A DNA stretch of 64,000 nucleotides from Halosimplex pelagicum (GTDB lineage Archaea; Halobacteriota; Halobacteria; Halobacteriales; Haloarculaceae). Numbering within the stretch: position 1 is the stretch's first letter; each line of letters starts with the position of its first letter. The stretch spans positions 2,170,001-2,234,000 of the forward strand of contig NZ_CP058909.1 of NCBI RefSeq assembly GCF_013415905.1, read 5' to 3'. Both the position numbers and the translations under genes were made by a program. Below the pieces are notes generated by a model. It worked only from the letters and a program-made list of their open reading frames with translations, was not told the DNA's origin and made no database searches. Shown one piece after another: positions 18 through 61,182 of this stretch.

Positions 18-54
18 TACTGTTTTAACCAACAATTCTATCGACTGGCGCTTT

Positions 55-400
55 GTGTTGGTTAGCACGAGGACAATTGATGTCCGTTGCACACCGGCTC
101 CACCGGCAAACCTTCCGACGGAGGTAGTCAACACGCTCAATGAGCTTGAACCGGAGCTCCTTCACGACGCTTGCATGTGTGCAGAAGTGTTTGCCGAGCA
201 CAAGGAATGTGGAGGCCTGTCTCGAGGAATCGACAGACTAGGAAAAAGTGGAGGAGCGACCAGACGGCCTCCTGGACGATGTCCCTGCCAAAGCGACGGT
301 CGCGGTCAAAGAGATCAACGATAATAGCTACTACTACTACTGGCAGTGTCGCGAAGGCGACACGGTAACCTCGAAGGGTCCAGTCAACTCTGTCCAGTGA
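55..400 (+). pseudogene. Decayed small conserved haloarchaeal protein
   Basis: Frame 1 from 55 encodes a plausible protein start containing LPTEVVNTLNELEPELL. The match then continues in another frame, containing EERPDGLLDDVPAKATV and ending VTSKGPVNSVQ at 398-400. A TAG lies between the two parts and the frame shifts near 195-205, so the gene is broken. The style (PAPP linker, aromatic YYYYWQ stretch near the C-terminus, about 110 residues) resembles small cytosolic proteins common near haloarchaeal mobile elements. I do not recognise a function. The fragment abuts an IS end on one side and an ISH4-like remnant on the other. Confidence 0.5.
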
Positions 401-4392: not shown

Positions 4393-5638
4393 TGTACCAC
4401 GCCTACAAGTACCGACTCAAGCCGTCCGACGCCCACCGTGAGGAGTTGGACCGCCACCGCGATATTTGTCGACAACTGTACAACCACACGCTCTACCGAC
4501 TCAACGAGTACCAAGACGCCATGGCGAACTGCCCTCGATGACCACGCTTCGGTCGGAGCTACCCGATCTCAAACAGTGGTGGGACGACCTCTCGGACGTG
4601 TACTCGAAGGTGCTCCAAACCGTCGTAGAACGGCTGTTCGACAACCTCAAAACCCTCTCCAAACTCAAGGAGAACGGCTACGGCGTCGGTCAACTCAAGT
4701 GGAAGCCACCACGGGAGTTCCGCAGTTTCACGTACAACCAGTCTGGCTTCAAGCTCGACAAGAAGGGCGGACAGGCTGTGCTGTCACTCTCGAAACTCGG
4801 AGACATACCGATTCGGCTTCACCGCGCCATCCCCGAAGACGCGACACTCAAACAGGTCACGGTCAAGAAGGAACCGACGGGCGAGTGGTTCGCCACCTTC
4901 GGCGTCGAAATGGACCGCGAACCGCCCGAACCGCCCGAGAACCCCGAGCGGTGCGTCGGTATCGACGTGGGGATTCTCACGTACGCCCACGACACCGACG
5001 GGACCGCCGTGGGGTCGCTCAACCTCTCCGTCGAACGGGAGCGATTGGAACGCGAACAGCGGTCCCTCTCACGGAAGGAACACGGGTCGAACAACTGGGA
5101 GAAGCAACGCCGACGAGTCGCGAAGTGTCACGCCGATCTTCGACGGAAGCGCCGCGACTTCCTCCCCAAGCTCTCGGCGTACTACGCTCGGGAGTACGAC
5201 CTCGTGGCGGTTGAAGACCTGAACGTGAAGGGGATGATGGAGTCGCCGTCGAACAGCCGCAACACGGCGTCGTCGGCATGGCGAACGTTCCTCTCGTTGC
5301 TCGAATACAAATGCGACCGCGAAGGGACGCACTTCGTCGCGGTGAACCCGAGAGGGACGACCAAAGAGTGTGCGTCATGCGGCGTCGAGACGGCGAAACC
5401 GCTGTGGGTCCGTGAACATTCCTGTCCCGCCTGCGGGTTTGAGGCGGACAGGGACGCGAACGCAGCATGGAACGTTCTTTCTCGCGGTCTACAAGATGTA
5501 GGAGTGGGACACTCCGAACGAACGCCTGTGGAGACTGCGCTCCCTACGGGAACCGATTCGGTTCCTGCAAAGCGCGTCATGGAAGCAGGAAGCCTCGCCC
5601 TCAAGCAGCGTCCGAAGGGCGTGAGTAGGGCGGGGTAG
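4392..5638 (+). pseudogene. tnpB: TnpB (IS605 OrfB) RNA-guided endonuclease, frameshifted near the start
   Basis: The start MYHAYKYRLKPSDAHREELD lies in one frame and runs to about 4540. The remainder, from MTTLRSELPDLKQWW on, lies in another, so one early indel near 4525-4540 breaks the gene. Downstream everything needed for a RuvC nuclease is present: Asp in VGIDVGIL, Glu in VAVEDLNVKGM, Asp in DRDANAAWN, and a zinc ribbon CASCG/CPACG between the last two. TnpB proteins of this family are guided by an RNA from the element's right end. Copy 2 lost two bases at a nearby position, so the two copies are inactivated independently. Confidence 0.88.
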
Positions 5639-30240: not shown

Positions 30241-31374
30241 ATGACAGACGCCAAGACCGGGGGTTTAGACGCCGAAACCGCCATCGAGGCCGCGATCGAC
30301 GCGCGACTCGCCAGCCTCGACTCGGGGAACTACCGAGCGAACAACGAGCTCGTCCTCAGCGTGTTCGCGGAGTACCTCACGGACCACCGTAGCGTCACGA
30401 CCCTCGAAGACTTGGACGTGCTCGACTGCCGGCGGTACGCTCAGTGGCTTCGCGAGCGCGCCCGTGATGACGAGGACGACCTTTCGGCGGCTTCTGCGCA
30501 CGCGAACGGTCCATACTTCACCATCGTCCGGGCCTTCCTCGGCTGGTGCGTCGACGACGAACGCCTCGACGCGAATCCCGCCCGGCCAAATCGGGTGAAA
30601 CAGGAACTCCCGGAGCATCACGGCGATCACGATCGCCAGTTCTGGTCTGTCGAAGCTCGTGACGCGTTGCTCGAATTCGTCGACAAACGTGCACACGACG
30701 CACTCGATGAATCAGACGACACACGAGAGCGAGCCTTCCGGGATAGAGCAATCGTGACCACGCTCGCGCTCACTGGCGCTCGTGGCGCTGAGCTGTTCAA
30801 TGATCCACGTGACGAATACCGCAATGGACTCCGCTGGAGCGACGTTGACCTCGGCCAAGGCGTCGCCGAGTTATTCGGGAAGACCCGCGAGCGACAGTTG
30901 ATCCCCCTGACTGACCAGGTTGTCGAGAGTCTCGAACGATACCGGTCCGTCCTCGAACCCGGGACAGTGGACTGGCCGGTGTTCCCGACGCGACACCACC
31001 CGTCACTTGCTCAATCCGCCAAGGACGGGCTCAGAGAGCAAGGATGGGATGATGATGCTATTGAGTCAGCGCTGAACGAGGCGACCGCGATGGAACTCCT
31101 TCGAGAGCACGAGAACACGCCGCCGCCCCTCTCAAAGAATGGGGCCCGATCGCTGATGAAACGGCTATGTGGGAGTGCCGATGTCGATATCGACGGCGAG
31201 TATCTGAAGCCTCACGGAGGACGGAGAGGTCTCGGAAGTGACCTCTACGCCCAAGACGCCGAACTTGCACAGGAAACCCTCCGACATGAGTCGATAGAAA
31301 CTACCCACGAATCCTACCGAGAGCAGAACGCAATCGAGCGGCGTGAGCGTCTAGAGCAGGCTCTCAACGAATAG
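30241..31374 (+). CDS. Tyrosine recombinase / XerC-D-like integrase
   Basis: 377 residues. An N-terminal SAM-like DNA-binding domain (about 1-130) contains YRANNELVLSVFAEYLTDHR. The catalytic domain has Arg181 in TGARGAEL, Lys in ELFGKTRERQ, His325 and Arg328 in KPHGGRRGLG, His349 in TLRHESIETTH, and the nucleophile candidate Tyr359 in ESYREQ. All active-site positions are present. It may integrate a mobile element or resolve multimers of the replicon. The close partition module downstream (ParA and iterons) suggests maintenance of the same element. No attachment site was identified. Confidence 0.9.
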   Translation: MTDAKTGGLDAETAIEAAIDARLASLDSGNYRANNELVLSVFAEYLTDHRSVTTLEDLDVLDCRRYAQWLRERARDDEDDLSAASAHANGPYFTIVRAFLGWCVDDERLDANPARPNRVKQELPEHHGDHDRQFWSVEARDALLEFVDKRAHDALDESDDTRERAFRDRAIVTTLALTGARGAELFNDPRDEYRNGLRWSDVDLGQGVAELFGKTRERQLIPLTDQVVESLERYRSVLEPGTVDWPVFPTRHHPSLAQSAKDGLREQGWDDDAIESALNEATAMELLREHENTPPPLSKNGARSLMKRLCGSADVDIDGEYLKPHGGRRGLGSDLYAQDAELAQETLRHESIETTHESYREQNAIERRERLEQALNE

Positions 31375-31509
31375 ACTGAACGTCGACCGGGAAATCAAGA
31401 ATTCTCAAATACTGTTTTATCTTGCTTGGAGATGTCTGGTCGGCCGGTCTCATGAGGTCCTGAATACGAACTCCGAATCGGCCTCAAATCACACCCGACC
31501 GCCCCGATA

Positions 31510-31860
31510 TGTTACAGACATCTATTACAGAGAATATTTACAGGCCAGTGTTACAGGTGGTGGGTGCATCATCCAGTTACAGATCTCTGGGTGTGCAACT
31601 CGGAGAATATCTGTGGCAGAAGTATGTAACAGACCTCTATAACAGATAGTCGTTATAGAAGGCCGCCACAGACGAATGTCGAAGAAAATTTGACGCCACT
31701 ACAGGGTCGTCTCGAAGTCCAGATGCTAGAATATGCCCCTCATACCACTAATGACGGCCCATTCTCGAAATAGATCCCGACACACGATCGTCGCTTGCAT
31801 CTGTAACAAACATCTGTAACTGATTTCTGTAACAGATATTCTGCCCGCTCGTCTGACACA
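31510..31860. repeat. TGTWACAGA iteron array upstream of parA
   Basis: Variants of TGTTACAG / CTGTAACA occur about a dozen times in 350 bp. A left cluster has copies starting at 31510, 31524, 31537 and 31549. A middle cluster lies at 31575-31584 and 31610-31646 in both orientations. A right cluster starts at 31801, 31814 and 31827, with a diverged copy near 31854. Spacing within clusters is 12-14 bases. The right cluster abuts the TATA-like box of parA. The array is best read as the ParA/partner operator and a candidate partition centromere, or as replication-origin iterons. Confidence 0.8.
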
Positions 31861-31868
31861 GATTTATG
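31861..31868 (+). promoter_or_regulatory. Probable TATA box of parA
   Basis: GATTTATG lies 25-32 bases before the ATG at 31893, the spacing expected for a nearly leaderless haloarchaeal transcript. The last iterons (31801-31860) directly cover the BRE side, so a protein bound there would block transcription factor B/TBP binding. Autoregulation is inferred. Confidence 0.5.
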
Positions 31869-31892
31869 TTGAGCTGCACAGATAGGGAGAGT

Positions 31893-32888
31893 ATGATAAC
31901 GGCCGTAGTCTACTCGGAATCAGGCGGGACGTTTAAGACGACGATGACAGCCAACGTCGCGGTAGCGCTAGAGCGGATGGGACAGAAGACGCTCGTGATC
32001 GACCTTGACCCACAGGAGGGGAACCTCACGAGCCTCTTCGACGTTGGCGCGCATCGAAGCGATCCAGACGCGGACAATCTTGTCAAGCACATCCTCGACA
32101 TGCCGGACGGAAAATTCGAGGACCTGATCGAGACTTCCGATGAGGGGATAGACATCATTCCGAGTCACGATATGCTTGGTGACTTCACTTCCAATCTGGA
32201 ACAAAAAATCTCCTACGAGACAGGGATGAAGAACATGAGCCGTGAGGAGTATCCACGATTCGAACTCCTGTATGAGCTGCTCTGGGATAAAGAGGAGATG
32301 CACGAGGAATACGATGCCGTTCTCATTGACCCGAATGCGCGAGCGGAAGACCTCCTCTACAACGCTATATTCGCACTCCGAACACTTGTCGCGCCGGTAA
32401 AACCCGCCGGGAAGGGGAACCTGAGTCTGGACGGTCTCGAGGAGTTGGTCGGGAACATGGAGTCCGAATTGGAAATCGAGATCGGCCTCTCTTGTGTCGT
32501 TCCCTCGGGCGTCGGGCAGACCAACGCACACCAGCAGTACCAACAGCAGTTCCAGAACACGGAGGCGTTCGCGACTCCAGTTACGATCGGGAACCGGGAG
32601 AGCCTCATGGATGCCATGTGGGAAGCCAGAGGATCGGCGTTCAAAGTGGTCGAACAGCGGTGGAAAACCTTCGAGAAAGACGGAGAAATGGTGAGCGAAG
32701 CAGGACAGCGACGCGTGCGTGACAGGGAAATCGAGACGTTACGGAAACTGTACGAACTCGCTCGATTCATCGCGACCGAGACGTTCGACACGGAGATTGA
32801 CCCGATACTTGAACTCGATATTCGAGACCACGAGAAGCAGACAATCGACCTGCGAAATGACGAATCAGTGGAGGCGACTTCTGCATGA
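31893..32888 (+). CDS. parA: ParA/Soj-family partition ATPase
   Basis: 331 residues from ATG 31893; upstream in-frame residues are not family-like. The deviant Walker A is SESGGTFKTT (residues 8-17). It lacks the usual second-position Lys and has Phe where Gly is common, a form I recall from haloarchaeal plasmid ParA proteins. Walker A' is LVIDLDPQEGN (Asp37, Asp39) and Walker B is AVLIDPNARAEDL. Such ATPases move or anchor plasmid DNA through a DNA-binding partner and often repress their own operon. The stop overlaps the partner gene by four bases. No repH or orc/cdc6 initiator gene lies in this window. Confidence 0.9.
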   Translation: MITAVVYSESGGTFKTTMTANVAVALERMGQKTLVIDLDPQEGNLTSLFDVGAHRSDPDADNLVKHILDMPDGKFEDLIETSDEGIDIIPSHDMLGDFTSNLEQKISYETGMKNMSREEYPRFELLYELLWDKEEMHEEYDAVLIDPNARAEDLLYNAIFALRTLVAPVKPAGKGNLSLDGLEELVGNMESELEIEIGLSCVVPSGVGQTNAHQQYQQQFQNTEAFATPVTIGNRESLMDAMWEARGSAFKVVEQRWKTFEKDGEMVSEAGQRRVRDREIETLRKLYELARFIATETFDTEIDPILELDIRDHEKQTIDLRNDESVEATSA

Positions 32889-33361
32889 ATAACTTCAAAT
32901 CCGGTTCCGGTAACCTCGACTTCGGCGGCGACGGCGACGAGTCAGCCGAAGAGGAGTCACCGGACGAGAAGACAGATACACACGACGAACAGACCGGTTC
33001 CAGATCACCTGACCAAGCTCACGCTGACCAGACAGGTCGAGAGTCATCATCAGCGGAACGGTCCACCGATGAACAGCCACCTGAGACCGAATCAGCGGGA
33101 TCGACCACTCCTTCGGAAGAATATCCGTACTTCGTTCGGCGGAATAACGTTGGCGACGAACGAGGCACACGTCTCGAGATCCACGTCCGTGATCGAGTCG
33201 CTGATCAAGAAGCAGAATTCCGAAACGAGCTCGCGGAGCTGCTTGGCACGAGCGAGATCTCGAAGACCGATGCCCGAGAGTTCGCCCTGATCGCTGCGTT
33301 TCACCATCCAGAACGAGTCGCTGATCTGATGCGGGAGGAGGGATTCGGGACTCTCGATTGA
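32885..33361 (+). CDS. Probable ParA partner protein (acidic linker plus C-terminal DNA-binding-like domain)
   Basis: 158 residues, starting in an ATGA overlap with parA, so the two are co-translated. Residues 1-75 are low-complexity, Asp/Glu/Ser/Thr-rich and probably disordered. The conserved-looking C-terminal half begins YPYFVRRNNVGDERGTRLEI and continues with short helices (FRNELAELLGTSEISKTDAR). It has no classic ParB nuclease-like domain. Position and pairing suggest the centromere-binding adaptor that recognises the iterons upstream, as RHH or small adaptors do in other par systems. This role is inferred. Confidence 0.65.
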   Translation: MNNFKSGSGNLDFGGDGDESAEEESPDEKTDTHDEQTGSRSPDQAHADQTGRESSSAERSTDEQPPETESAGSTTPSEEYPYFVRRNNVGDERGTRLEIHVRDRVADQEAEFRNELAELLGTSEISKTDAREFALIAAFHHPERVADLMREEGFGTLD

Positions 33362-45810: not shown

Positions 45811-47050
45811 CTACTCGCTCACGGCTGACGCCGTTGGCTCCTTGAGGGTAGGGCTTCCTGCTTCCACGACGCGCTTTGCAGACACAGGTGTGTCCACAGG
45901 AAGCGCAGTCTCCACAGGCGTTTGTTTGGAGTGTCCCACTCCTACTTTTTCGAGACCGCGAGAAAGGATGTTCCATGCTGCGTTCGCGTCCCTGTCCGCC
46001 TCGAACCCGCAGGCGGGACAGGAATGTTCACGGACCCACAATGGCTTGTCCGTCGAGACTCCACAGGACGCGCACTCTTTCGTCGTCCCACGAGGGTTCA
46101 CGGCGGCGAAGTGCGTTCCCTCTCGCTCGCACTTGTATTCGAGCAACGAGAGGAACGTCCGCCACGCAGCGGACGCGGTGTTTCGGCTGTTCGACGGCGA
46201 TTCCATCATCCCCTTCACGTTCAGGTCTTCGACCGCCACAAGGTCGTACTCCCGAGCGTAGTAGTTCGAGAGTTTGTGCAGAAAGTCACGGCGCTTCCGA
46301 CGGAGGTCGGCGTGACACTCCGCGACGTGACGCCGTTGCGTCTCGTAGTTGTTCGAGCCATGTTCCTTCCGCGAGAGCTTCCGTTGCTCGCGCTCCAAGC
46401 GTTCGCGCTCGTCGGACAGATCGAGCGACCCAACGGCGTGACCGTCGGTGTCGTGAGCGTACTTCAGGATGCCCACGTCGATGCCGACGCACTGCTCGGG
46501 ATTTTCGGGTGGTTCGGGCGGTTCGCAGTCCATCTCGACACCGAACGTGGCAAACCACTCGCCCGTTGGATCCTTCTTGACCGTGACCTGTTTGAGTGTC
46601 GCGTCGTCGGGGATGGGTCGGTGAAGCCGTATTGGTACGTCCGCGAGCTTCGAGAGTGACAGCACAGCCTGTCCGCCCTTCTTGTCGAGCTTGAAGCCAG
46701 ACTGACTGTACGTGAAACTGCGGAACTCCCGTGGTGGCTTCCATTTGAGTTGACCGACGCCGTACCCCTTCTCCTTAAGCTTAGAGAGCCCCTTGAGGTT
46801 GTCGAACAGCCGTTCCACGACGGTTTGGAGAACCTTTGAGTACACGTCTGAGAGGCCGTCCCACCACTGCTTGAGGTCGGGTAGTTCCGACCGAAGCGTG
46901 GTCATGGACGGAAGTTCGCCGTGATTTTCTTGGTACTCGTTGAGGCGGTAGAGTGTGGTTGTAGAGTTGCCGACAAATATCGCGGTGGCGGTCCAGCTCC
47001 TCACGGTGGGTATCAGACGGCCTGAGACGATATTTGTAGGCGTAGTACAT
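45811..47050 (-). pseudogene. tnpB: TnpB (IS605 OrfB), two-base deletion near the start (copy 2)
   Basis: The head MYYAYKYRLRPSDTHREELD and DRHRDICRQLYNHTL lie in one frame. Two bases are missing near 46952 compared with copy 1, and the remainder (LYRLNEYQENHGELPSMTTL on) is in another. The RuvC Asp (VGIDVGILKYA), Glu (VAVEDLNVKGM) and Asp (DRDANAAWN) and the zinc ribbon CASCG/CPACG are intact. A different start in the second frame could still give a protein lacking the native N-terminus. Confidence 0.87.
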
Positions 47051-47053
47051 TCG

Positions 47054-47173
47054 CTACTCGCGTTCTTCGATAAGTTCGTCCAACTGCTCACGGATGAACG
47101 ACGAGAGGTTGAGGTGTTGGTCCTCAATCCACTCATCTTGGTCTTCCCGAATGGTGATCGTCTTCCGTTTCAC
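47054..47173 (-). CDS. 39-residue ribbon-helix-helix protein associated with TnpB
   Basis: It starts at GTG 47173 as MKRKTITIREDQDEWIEDQH, followed by LNLSSFIREQLDELIEERE. The pattern beta-strand (KTITIRED), helix, Ser-Ser-Phe-Ile-Arg turn and second helix is a minimal RHH DNA-binding domain. The stop lies one base before the tnpB ATG context (three bases apart), so the two are one transcript. Proteins like it sit upstream of tnpB in many haloarchaeal IS1341-type elements; repression of tnpB or end binding is a reasonable guess. Confidence 0.78.
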   Translation of the reverse strand: MKRKTITIREDQDEWIEDQHLNLSSFIREQLDELIEERE

Positions 47174-60013: not shown

Positions 60014-61039
60014 AGACTACGAGCAAAGCAGAACTTCAACGCGAAACCTACGACGACGTGCGGGCCGAAACGAGGCTTCAAGCGAACCTCGTCCAGAACG
60101 CCCGCAACAAGGCCGCCGACGCCGTACAGAGCGTCGTCGCTCGGTGGAAGCAAGGTGACTACGCGGGGAAACCGCACTTCACCGCCCCGACGCTCGTCTA
60201 CGACAAGCGATGTGCGACGTTCAACGACGACGACGCGACGCTCTCAACCGTCGAAGGACGCATCACCGCCGAGTACGTCCTTCCCGACGAGAGCCGCGAG
60301 ACTCCCCACTCGGAGTACCTATTCAACGACGACTACGAAGTGACGGGCGCAGAACTCCACTACCGAGATGGTGAGTTCTACCTTCACGTCCGAACAAAGG
60401 CGGACGTGGAGTTCGAGACTGCCGACGACGGCAACGACGGGCACAGCACAGTCCTCGGCGTTGACCTTGGCATCGAAAACGTCGCCGTCACCTCAACCGG
60501 CGAGTTCTGGAACGGATCGGAGTTGAATCACTGGCATCGTGAGTTCGAGAAGCGGCGTGGGTCGCTCCAACAGCGTGGAACGCGGGCCGCTCACGAAACT
60601 ATGCAATCGGTCGGACGCACCGAGACGGGTCGCTACGACCACTTCTTACACACCGTCTCGAAGGAACTCGTCGCGGAAGCCGTCGAACATGACTGTGACG
60701 TAATCGCGTTTGAGAACCTGACGGGGATTCGTGAGCGGATGCCTCGTGCCAAGAAGTTCCATGCATGGGCGTTCCGTCGACTGTACGACTACGTGGCGTA
60801 CAAAGGCGAAGTAGAGGGTATCTCGGTCAAGCAGGTGAGTCCCGCTTACACGAGCCAGCGGTGTTCCAAGTGTGGGTTCACTCACGAGAACAACCGCCCG
60901 ATCTCGGACGGACAGGACGCGTTCAAGTGTCTGAAGTGCGGGTACTCACCGCACGCGGACTACAACGCGGCGAAGAACATCGGTCTGAAGCATCTCCGCT
61001 CGGCGCAAAAGTCTTCGGGCGGAGGCGCACCCGTAAACG

Positions 61040-61182
61040 TGCGCTTGAATCGCGGGACGTTGAACGTGAACGGCGATTATGAGCCTGCCGCCGTCGGCGG
61101 CCAGAACGGGAATCCACGCGAAAGCCCCACCCTCAACGAAGCGAACGGCGAAGCCGTGAGCGAGTAGGGTGGGGTAGTTTAC
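61040..61182 (+). ncRNA. Candidate TnpB guide (omega) RNA at the element right end
   Basis: By analogy with characterised TnpB systems, the RNA scaffold covers the 3' end of tnpB and the IS right end. Here that end is GTAGTTTAC at 61182, with the guide taken from the flanking bases after it. No promoter or structure was computed; position only. Confidence 0.3.

What the first reader, a model, noticed from the sequence alone, without database searches (positions are those of the whole stretch)
31497..33361. Self-contained iteron-ParA-adaptor partition module with 13-bp-phased repeats
About a dozen TGTWACAGA repeats, in clusters with 12-14 bp spacing and both orientations, fill the 350 bp before parA and end against its TATA-like box. 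The ParA has an unusual P-loop (GGTFKTT, with Phe for Gly and no leading Lys). Its four-base-overlapping partner is not ParB-like but an acidic disordered tail with a small C-terminal domain. Together this looks like an archaeal par system in which the small partner, not a ParB, reads the iterons. No replication initiator is near, so the array is more probably a centromere/operator than an origin.
Basis: partly seen in the sequence, partly recalled or inferred. Interest (0 to 1): 0.72.

Follow-up and report, generated by a model that had tools for sequence, protein, structure and literature searches.

The report
Haloarchaeal megaplasmid partition cassette
Salt-loving archaea carry on their large plasmids a compact three-part cassette, made of a ladder of short DNA palindromes spaced 13 letters apart, a motor-like ATPase and a small unnamed partner protein, which very probably makes sure that daughter cells inherit the plasmid.

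Summary
The repeat is a 13-bp palindrome, ATCTGTWACAGAT: 11 sites (up to 4 mismatches; about 1 in shuffles) at 31507-31863, on a 13-bp grid, the last abutting the TATA-like box of parA (ATG 31893). Array, parA and overlapping partner gene recur as a cassette: 39 of 40 non-redundant haloarchaeal loci have at least 4 sites; 351 of 520 site pairs within 120 bp are multiples of 13; no flanking ORF is shared by more than 4 other of 38 loci. More distant ParA-partner pairs mostly show 13-bp phasing with other repeat sequences, so the repeats follow the par subfamily. A partner profile hits 250 of 391 genomes of the class; the family has no Pfam or NCBIfam model. 0 of 107 ParAs have the signature lysine. 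The window lies in a low-GC island of about 0.46 Mb with Orc1/Cdc6 genes, probably an integrated megaplasmid. Best reading: a type I-like partition cassette whose partner reads the array as centromere and operator, working like SegAB. DNA binding is inferred and the partner's fold unresolved. New variant of a known kind.

The parts
31507..31584 (.). Distal cluster of 13-bp palindromic sites (starts 31507, 31520, 31546, 31572; 13/26-bp grid)
31609..31647 (.). Middle cluster of three contiguous 13-bp sites (31609, 31622, 31635)
31799..31863 (.). Proximal cluster (31799, 31812, 31825, 31851); 31812 and 31825 are 1 mismatch from the palindrome; 31851 overlaps the promoter element
   Evidence: a site starts at -46..-42 in 29 of 40 loci
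31851..31867 (+). Promoter: GTCTGAC (31851-31857), N5, TATA-like TTTAT (31863-31867)
   Evidence: GTCTGAC starts at -47..-40 in 49 of 75 non-redundant par loci across subfamilies; also found at other haloarchaeal promoters
31893..32888 (+). parA, 331 aa, P-loop ESGGTFKTT (no signature Lys), K174 invariant in the clan
   Evidence: Pfam AAA_31 72.2 bits, CbiA 48.3 bits
32885..33361 (+). Partner gene, 158 aa: N-terminal motif FKSGSGNLDF, acidic linker, helical C-terminal domain (helices 99-120, 127-140, 142-151)
   Evidence: no Pfam or NCBIfam model over its cut-off
30241..31374 (+). Tyrosine recombinase just upstream; a neighbour, not part of the conserved cassette
   Evidence: Pfam Phage_integrase 52.7 bits; no flanking ORF recurs widely

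Best explanation
This is a self-contained ParA-type DNA partition (segregation) cassette of a haloarchaeal megaplasmid, here inside a low-GC island of the chromosome that is probably an integrated megaplasmid. Proposed working: dimers of the small partner bind the 13-bp palindromes through their C-terminal domain and load side by side on the 13-bp grid, making a partition complex (array = centromere). The conserved N-terminal motif, held out on the disordered acidic linker, touches ParA-ATP on the nucleoid and triggers hydrolysis, so that the plasmid follows ParA. Binding at the site that covers GTCTGAC and abuts the TATA-like box also represses the par operon (array = operator). Shown: array, phasing, conservation, subfamily-specific repeat sequence, gene overlap, absence of the signature Lys in the clan, invariant K174 of ParA, nearly invariant K5 of the partner. 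Inferred: DNA binding by the partner, ATPase stimulation, repression, segregation.
For: Array concentrated upstream of parA: 298 sites (at most 3 mismatches) in 31.6 kb upstream (40 loci), 19 in 30.6 kb downstream of the partner (39 of these loci), 9 in 39.7 kb of parA coding sequence. 13-bp phasing: 351 of 520 pairs within 120 bp; in 34 distant loci the pooled self-match peaks at lags 13, 26, 52 and 39, and the best lag is one of these in 25 of 34. Repeat sequence follows the ParA subfamily: own motif 14.9/kb in 37 own loci, at most 0.3/kb in nine other groups; c3 motif TATCTWAGATA 11.7/kb in 14 loci, at most 1.0/kb elsewhere, as expected if a co-encoded protein reads it. The ParAs (276-332 aa in 76) begin almost at the P-loop (residue 9), with no room for an N-terminal HTH, leaving the partner as the likely reader. 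Gene overlap: 36 of 38 loci have the partner start at -4 or -1 from the parA stop (the others: L025 with broken parA, and the phiCh1 virus at -8; two plasmids are counted twice). ParA on plasmids: 42 records at 60% identity or more; the 40 best listed are all haloarchaeal. Cassette only: of 687 flanking ORFs of 38 loci none is shared by more than 4 other loci.
Against: No binding or segregation data exist. The partner matches no known DNA-binding family: Pfam and NCBIfam give only hits below cut-off; PDB profile searches give nothing below E 0.6; Foldseek nothing better than E 5; profile-profile comparison with haloarchaeal RHH_1 proteins scores 14.7, exceeded by 2 of 20 column-permuted controls, and 11.3 without L126. 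In 9 of 34 distant loci the best self-match lag is not a multiple of 13, c4 (4 loci) gave no 13-bp array, the c6 consensus is not palindromic, and the script's own palindromy score did not separate real from shuffled upstreams. Motifs of small groups cross-match. 10 of 39 loci have sites downstream of the partner too.
Confidence: 0.8

Rival explanations
1. The array is an iteron replication origin or copy-control site and ParA/partner are incidental neighbours.
For: Tandem short repeats on plasmids are typical of iteron origins (general knowledge). In 1 of 7 annotated plasmid stretches an orc1/cdc6 gene is shown (L042), and an ORF that looks Orc-like by eye lies 0.1 kb downstream of the partner in L067, with similar ORFs in 3 other loci.
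Against: No initiator belongs to the cassette: 6 of 7 annotated stretches of about 9 kb show none, and no flanking ORF recurs in more than 4 other of 38 loci. Repeats stay with parA whatever the neighbours, and their sequence follows the par subfamily. No Orc1/Cdc6 match in this window; RepH-type initiators not searched for.
Confidence: 0.08
2. The array is only a transcriptional operator; the proteins act in something other than plasmid partition (for example cargo positioning, as McdAB does).
For: The proximal site covers GTCTGAC and abuts the TATA-like box; the ParA has Ser in the signature-lysine position, as McdA does (PMC9178275 Table 1); the partner is largely disordered and not ParB-like.
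Against: Up to 12 sites per locus are more than an operator needs; 13-bp-phased sites also lie downstream of the partner in L055, L075 and L079; the cassette is carried on plasmids with differing neighbours.
Confidence: 0.08
3. Same partition role, but ParA or a host factor, not the partner, recognises the palindromes; the partner only bridges to or stimulates ParA.
For: No DNA-binding family could be assigned to the partner. GTCTGAC is used at other haloarchaeal promoters, so a host factor may bind in the proximal site.
Against: The ParAs lack an N-terminal DNA-reading domain; a host factor would not explain repeats that differ between par subfamilies within one order.
Confidence: 0.15

Closest known systems
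SegAB of Sulfolobales and some Euryarchaeota (SegA ParA-like ATPase, SegB RHH protein)
   Same: ParA gene followed by an overlapping gene for a small archaeal partner with unstructured N-terminus; 13-bp palindromes upstream of the ParA gene, one next to the start (PMC5120986 and PMC12284271, passages seen).
   Different: SegB sites are TCTAGASTCTAGA and scattered over the chromosome; here a tandem array of other palindromes sits beside the cassette, and the exact 9-mer TGTWACAGA forms no other cluster in this genome. No PDB chain matched by the partner profiles is a segregation protein. Carried on megaplasmids.
Bacterial type Ib partition systems (ParF-ParG, delta-omega)
   Same: ParA without N-terminal HTH, small non-ParB partner with disordered N-terminus, upstream repeats serving as operator and centromere (recalled, apart from review passages).
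   Different: ParA lacks the signature Lys; partner fold unproven; the repeat is a 13-bp palindrome on a 13-bp grid, not the short direct repeats recalled for omega or ParG.
McdAB carboxysome positioning (beta type 1)
   Same: ParA-family ATPase lacking the signature Lys (Ser in McdA), non-ParB partially disordered partner (PMC8262871 and PMC9178275, passages seen).
   Different: Cargo is a carboxysome, not a plasmid with a DNA array (recalled); the mid-protein extension of beta-McdA type 1 was not looked for here.
AspA-ParB-ParA of Sulfolobus plasmid pNOB8
   Same: Archaeal plasmid par cassette with a small site-specific protein and a palindromic centromere upstream (PMC5120986, passages).
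   Different: Three genes with a ParB; here two genes and no ParB match.

Membership tests
ParA/MinD superfamily, partition ATPase | Pfam AAA_31/CbiA match over cut-off | tested here: met
   72.2 and 48.3 bits against cut-offs 27 and 25.4
ParA/MinD superfamily, partition ATPase | Signature lysine in KGGxxK[ST] | tested here: not met
   0 of 107 ParAs read from 118 loci; Ala 60, Ser 47
Type I partition cassette (ParABS-like) | Second gene for a partner in the same operon | tested here: met
   partner start at -4 or -1 from the parA stop in 36 of 38 loci; co-transcription itself not testable
Type I partition cassette (ParABS-like) | Repeat array (centromere) linked to the genes | tested here: met
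   39 of 40 loci with at least 4 sites
Type I partition cassette (ParABS-like) | Partner binds the array; plasmid stabilised | not testable with these tools
   needs EMSA/footprint and plasmid-loss assay
ParB (HTH/CTPase) family | Partner matches a ParB model | tested here: not met
   no ParB hit in Pfam or NCBIfam
SegAB | 13-bp palindromes upstream of the ParA gene | tested here: met
SegAB | SegB motif TCTAGASTCTAGA | tested here: not met
   motifs found are TCTGTWACAGA, TATCTWAGATA, TTAGNCTAA and others; the SegB motif itself was not scanned for
SegAB | Partner homologous to SegB / RHH fold | tested here: inconclusive
   no PDB sequence match below E 0.6; hhalign to RHH_1 at control level; divergent member L126 weakly hits RHH_5, E 0.19; AF2 monomer shows three helices and no strand
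AspA-ParB-ParA | Three-gene cassette with ParB | tested here: not met
   no third gene recurs; no ParB match of the partner
Iteron replication origin | Initiator gene linked to the iterons | tested here: not met
   orc1/cdc6 shown in 1 of 7 annotated stretches; no Orc1/Cdc6 match in the window; RepH-type initiators not searched for

The most novel reading that the evidence does not exclude
Haloarchaeal megaplasmids share a clan of lysine-less ParA partition machines in which another conserved lysine replaces the signature lysine: either ParA K174 in cis (76 of 76 ParAs), or the partner's K5 in FKSGSG in trans, acting as activator and missing lysine at once (61 of 61 members of A5; but Arg in L110 and no such motif in L126). 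The 13-bp-phased, subfamily-specific repeats form a modular incompatibility code that decides which megaplasmids can share a cell.
Probability: 0.3. Interest if true: 0.75.

Novelty: new variant of a known kind. Interest (0 to 1): 0.6.

Why it matters
How haloarchaeal megaplasmids are segregated is little known (general knowledge). Seven searches of the open-licence PMC library aimed at this (capped lists, some papers unlisted) and passages of the papers opened showed no description of a centromere or adaptor for them. This cassette is a concrete, portable candidate: a defined array, a ParA and an adaptor, whose partner family is in 250 of 391 genomes sampled from the class and which is on Halobacterium salinarum pNRC200, where tests are practical. 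It also offers a natural family of ParAs without the signature lysine, and partner/repeat pairs of different specificity for working out a recognition code. In 6 of 7 plasmid records examined the partner is named 'acyl-CoA dehydrogenase', which hides it.

Tried and rejected
RHH fold for the partner: suggested by the sequence pattern and by SegB, but AF2, Foldseek, PDB searches, Pfam scans and hhalign with permuted controls did not establish it; kept only as a plausible idea (about 0.45). Weak Foldseek resemblance to histone-fold chains (E 5-10) dismissed as chance level.

A second array in the own genome: two TGTWACAGA about 30 bp apart at 1.327 Mb are not part of an array and no ParA or partner match lies there. 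Viral contigs: one scan with the ParA alignment found no relative. phiCh1 ORF46 is a distant ParA with the signature Lys, with no partner match and no site in its upstream DNA.

The first motif script drifted to low-information motifs and is not used; the second recovered the own motif and is. GTCTGAC was first taken for a par-specific element; it proved to occur at other haloarchaeal promoters. Alignments to McdA structures at K174 were sought but no McdA chain was listed there.

Rows dropped before counts: one search leaves out L088, L089, L090, L093 (no ParA), L058 and L063 (parA broken, with N) and, as near-duplicates, L076 and L091; its downstream count lacks L083 (no partner called). One search uses 38 loci: without those eight, L083 and the window. 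One search uses 34 of 40 stretches (without L114, L115, L117, L129, and L116 and L118 of the own subfamily). One search reads 107 ParAs from 118 loci, 76 after removing near-identical ones; 75 have enough upstream DNA.

Full report
WHAT IS THERE. The stretch 31507-33361 holds a repeat array, parA (ATG 31893, 331 aa) and a partner gene (32885-33361, 158 aa) overlapping parA by ATGA. The repeat is best written as a 13-bp palindrome, ATCTGTWACAGAT. In 31381-31920 there are 6, 10 and 11 sites at up to 2, 3 and 4 mismatches; 300 dinucleotide shuffles gave means of 0.02, 0.16 and 1.16 and maxima of 1, 2 and 6. Three clusters (starts 31507/31520/31546/31572, 31609/31622/31635, 31799/31812/31825/31851) keep a 13-bp grid: 14 of 16 pairs within 60 bp are multiples of 13, a value reached in 0 of 20,000 random placements. 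The last site abuts TTTAT 26-30 bp upstream of the ATG.

WHERE IT LIES. The window is base 2,170,001-2,234,000 of a single 5.2-Mb contig. In samples of 10-20 kb, GC is 0.54-0.61 in every sample from 2.08 to 2.54 Mb, while most others are near 0.70; two other low samples lie at 1.40 Mb (0.62) and 4.00 Mb (0.54). Orc1/Cdc6 genes over the model's cut-off lie inside this island at 2,150,408 and 2,166,321 (left of the window) and at 2,531,779 and 2,534,581, besides a weaker match at 2,083,426. This is best read as an integrated megaplasmid of roughly 0.46 Mb (inference). No Orc1/Cdc6 match falls in the window. Two genomes of the same genus that were tested (G161, G275) lack the partner family, which fits an accessory element.

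RELATIVES. tblastn of ParA finds 690 plasmid records, 181 with at least 80% coverage; these include bacterial ParAs. 42 records reach 60% identity, and the 40 best listed (72-88%) are all haloarchaeal, among them Halobacterium pNRC200. In the seven annotated plasmid stretches examined the partner follows parA each time, named 'acyl-CoA dehydrogenase' in six and 'hypothetical protein' in one. The partner as single query hits 176 of 292 genomes of the window's class; a profile of 25 distant partners hits 250 of 391; in a phylum-wide sample 47 of 392 match, all 47 of the window's order. One scan of viral contigs found no relative.

THE ARRAY IS CONSERVED. Of 47 genome-contig loci, 41 have an intact parA start. 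With the window that makes 42 loci, 40 after removing near-duplicates: 298 sites (at most 3 mismatches) in 31.6 kb upstream of parA, 19 in 30.6 kb downstream of the partner (39 loci), 9 in 39.7 kb of parA coding sequence; 39 of 40 loci have at least 4 sites, one has 3; 351 of 520 site pairs within 120 bp are multiples of 13; 29 of 40 loci have a site starting at -46..-42. 10 of 39 loci have at least one site downstream; L055, L075 and L079 have 13-bp-phased ones there.

DIFFERENT SUBFAMILIES, DIFFERENT REPEATS, SAME 13-BP GRID. Of 40 further stretches fetched, 39 were chosen for a partner hit and all 39 have a ParA match, partial in L115, L117 and L129. In 34 distant loci the pooled upstream DNA matches itself most at lags 13, 26, 52 and 39 (12.7, 8.1, 4.7 and 4.7 per thousand; median over lags 0.5). 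Locus by locus, the best lag is one of these four in 25 of 34 and another in 9. Motif search by ParA group gives TCTGTwACAGA (own), TATCTwAGATA (c3), TTAGnCTAA (c2a), CAGTnAnACTG-like (c2d), ACTGnnCAGT-like (c2e), TATAgcTATA-like (c5). These cores are palindromic by eye; the c6 consensus is not, the script's palindromy score did not separate real from shuffled upstreams, and c4 (4 loci) gave 1 of 13 spacings on the grid. Spacings of 13/26/39/52: own 136 of 399, shuffled 3 of 57; c3 23 of 94, shuffled 5 of 56; c2 25 of 85, shuffled 2 of 56. Cross-counts: the own motif is at 14.9 per kb in 37 own loci and at most 0.3 per kb in nine other groups; the c3 motif at 11.7 per kb in 14 loci and at most 1.0 elsewhere. 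Motifs of the small groups are less exclusive: c2d, c2e and c4 cross-match, and so do c5 and c2c. Conservation inside and change between subfamilies is expected of a site read by a co-encoded protein and of plasmid incompatibility groups.

THE CASSETTE IS SELF-CONTAINED. Among 687 flanking ORFs of 38 loci (up to 4 kb each side) no ORF is shared by more than 4 other loci. Partner loci without ParA (L088, L090, L093) are truncated or frameshifted and have no site at 2 mismatches nearby; L089 is at a contig edge.

THE PARA. Pfam AAA_31 and CbiA over cut-off. The P-loop is ESGGT[FY]KTT in the own subfamily and mostly EAGGVGK[TS] elsewhere; 0 of 107 ParAs carry the signature lysine (Ala 60, Ser 47). 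K15 (catalytic), K174 and R235 are invariant in 76 non-redundant ParAs; in the profile alignment to the Soj structure 1wcv, K174 falls on a Tyr. Ser at the signature position is known from McdA and Tyr before the catalytic Lys from SopA (PMC9178275, Table 1; PMC8262871; passages only). From memory, not from a call: in McdA another lysine takes over the role. The ParA profile also finds McdA structures (6noo, 6non, 6nop), after Soj and others.

THE PARTNER. N-terminal FKSGSGNLDF, a variable acidic linker, and a C-terminal domain. In 61 members K5, G7, P81, R86, R93 and R131 are invariant; outside that set L110 has Arg for K5 and L126 lacks the motif. AF2 gives confident helices 99-120, 127-140 and 142-151 and low confidence before residue 100. 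The fold is not identified. The alternating pattern before the first helix and weak hits to RHH_5 (L126, E 0.19) and VapB_antitoxin (L136, E 0.043) suggest a ribbon-helix-helix, whose ribbon a monomer model may not show; but PDB profile search, Foldseek and hhalign (2 of 20 permuted controls score higher) do not support it statistically.

HOW IT MOST LIKELY WORKS. Partner dimers on a 13-bp grid form the partition complex; the N-terminal motif on the flexible linker meets ParA-ATP on the nucleoid; hydrolysis lets the complex move up the ParA gradient; the proximal site, covering GTCTGAC and abutting the TATA-like box, gives autoregulation. The anatomy is shown; the steps are inferred from SegAB and type Ib systems (PMC5120986, PMC12284271 and PMC9178275, passages seen; type Ib details recalled).

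PROMOTER ELEMENT. GTCTGAC starts at -47..-40 from the parA ATG in 49 of 75 non-redundant loci across subfamilies with different repeats, and 2 times elsewhere in 32.5 kb upstream. GTCTGAC-N5-TTTAT occurs 5 times in the own genome, 0 in the reversed control; each has an ATG 40-43 bp after the start of GTCTGAC (for four; the fifth is parA), though the ORF in L235 overlaps a long ORF on the other strand and may not be a gene. In 37 genomes of the family it occurs 123 times against 4 in the reversed control (my sums of the table). Of 33 sites inspected 16 have a start codon opening an ORF of 60 aa or more at +40..43, 11 have none within +30..79; of 26 TTTAT without GTCTGAC in the same loci 3 have one at +40..44. 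It looks like a promoter element used by par operons among others, not part of the repeat code.

NOVELTY. The kind (ParA plus small non-ParB partner plus repeat array) is known; the partner family, the lysine-less clan and the 13-bp-phased subfamily-specific arrays were not found described. Ten searches of the open-licence PMC library ran, of which seven bear on this question and three on SegAB, GTCTGAC and McdA; the lists were capped. Seen were passages of PMC5120986, PMC12284271, PMC9178275, PMC10818511, PMC6471424, PMC11588486, PMC8628078, PMC11431627 and PMC8262871; no paper was read whole. Subscription literature was not searched, so prior description cannot be excluded.

Noticed in passing
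window 31851-31867; G000:C1 2,018,653 and others: GTCTGAC-N5-TTTAT, apparently a haloarchaeal promoter element about 42 bp before leaderless starts: 123 against 4 (reversed control) in 37 genomes; start at +40..43 in 16 of 33 sites, control 3 of 26 at +40..44; seen before a small conserved protein and before other ParAs. One paper search on the letters gave 4 papers by title none about promoters.
   Followed up: partly
G000:C1 about 2.08-2.54 Mb, containing the window: Low-GC island (0.54-0.61 against about 0.70) with four Orc1/Cdc6 genes over cut-off inside it, probably an integrated megaplasmid.
   Followed up: partly
L039, L040, L041, L042, L043, L045, gene after parA: The partner is annotated 'acyl-CoA dehydrogenase' in 6 of 7 plasmid records, with no Pfam or NCBIfam support for the window's partner.
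   Followed up: yes
L055, L075, L079 downstream of the partner: Further 13-bp-phased sites lie downstream of the partner gene.
   Followed up: no
window 4466-5638, 45811-47136 and 60058-61167: Three ORFs that look like TnpB-type transposon proteins, besides several transposase-like ORFs (read by eye, not scanned).
   Followed up: no
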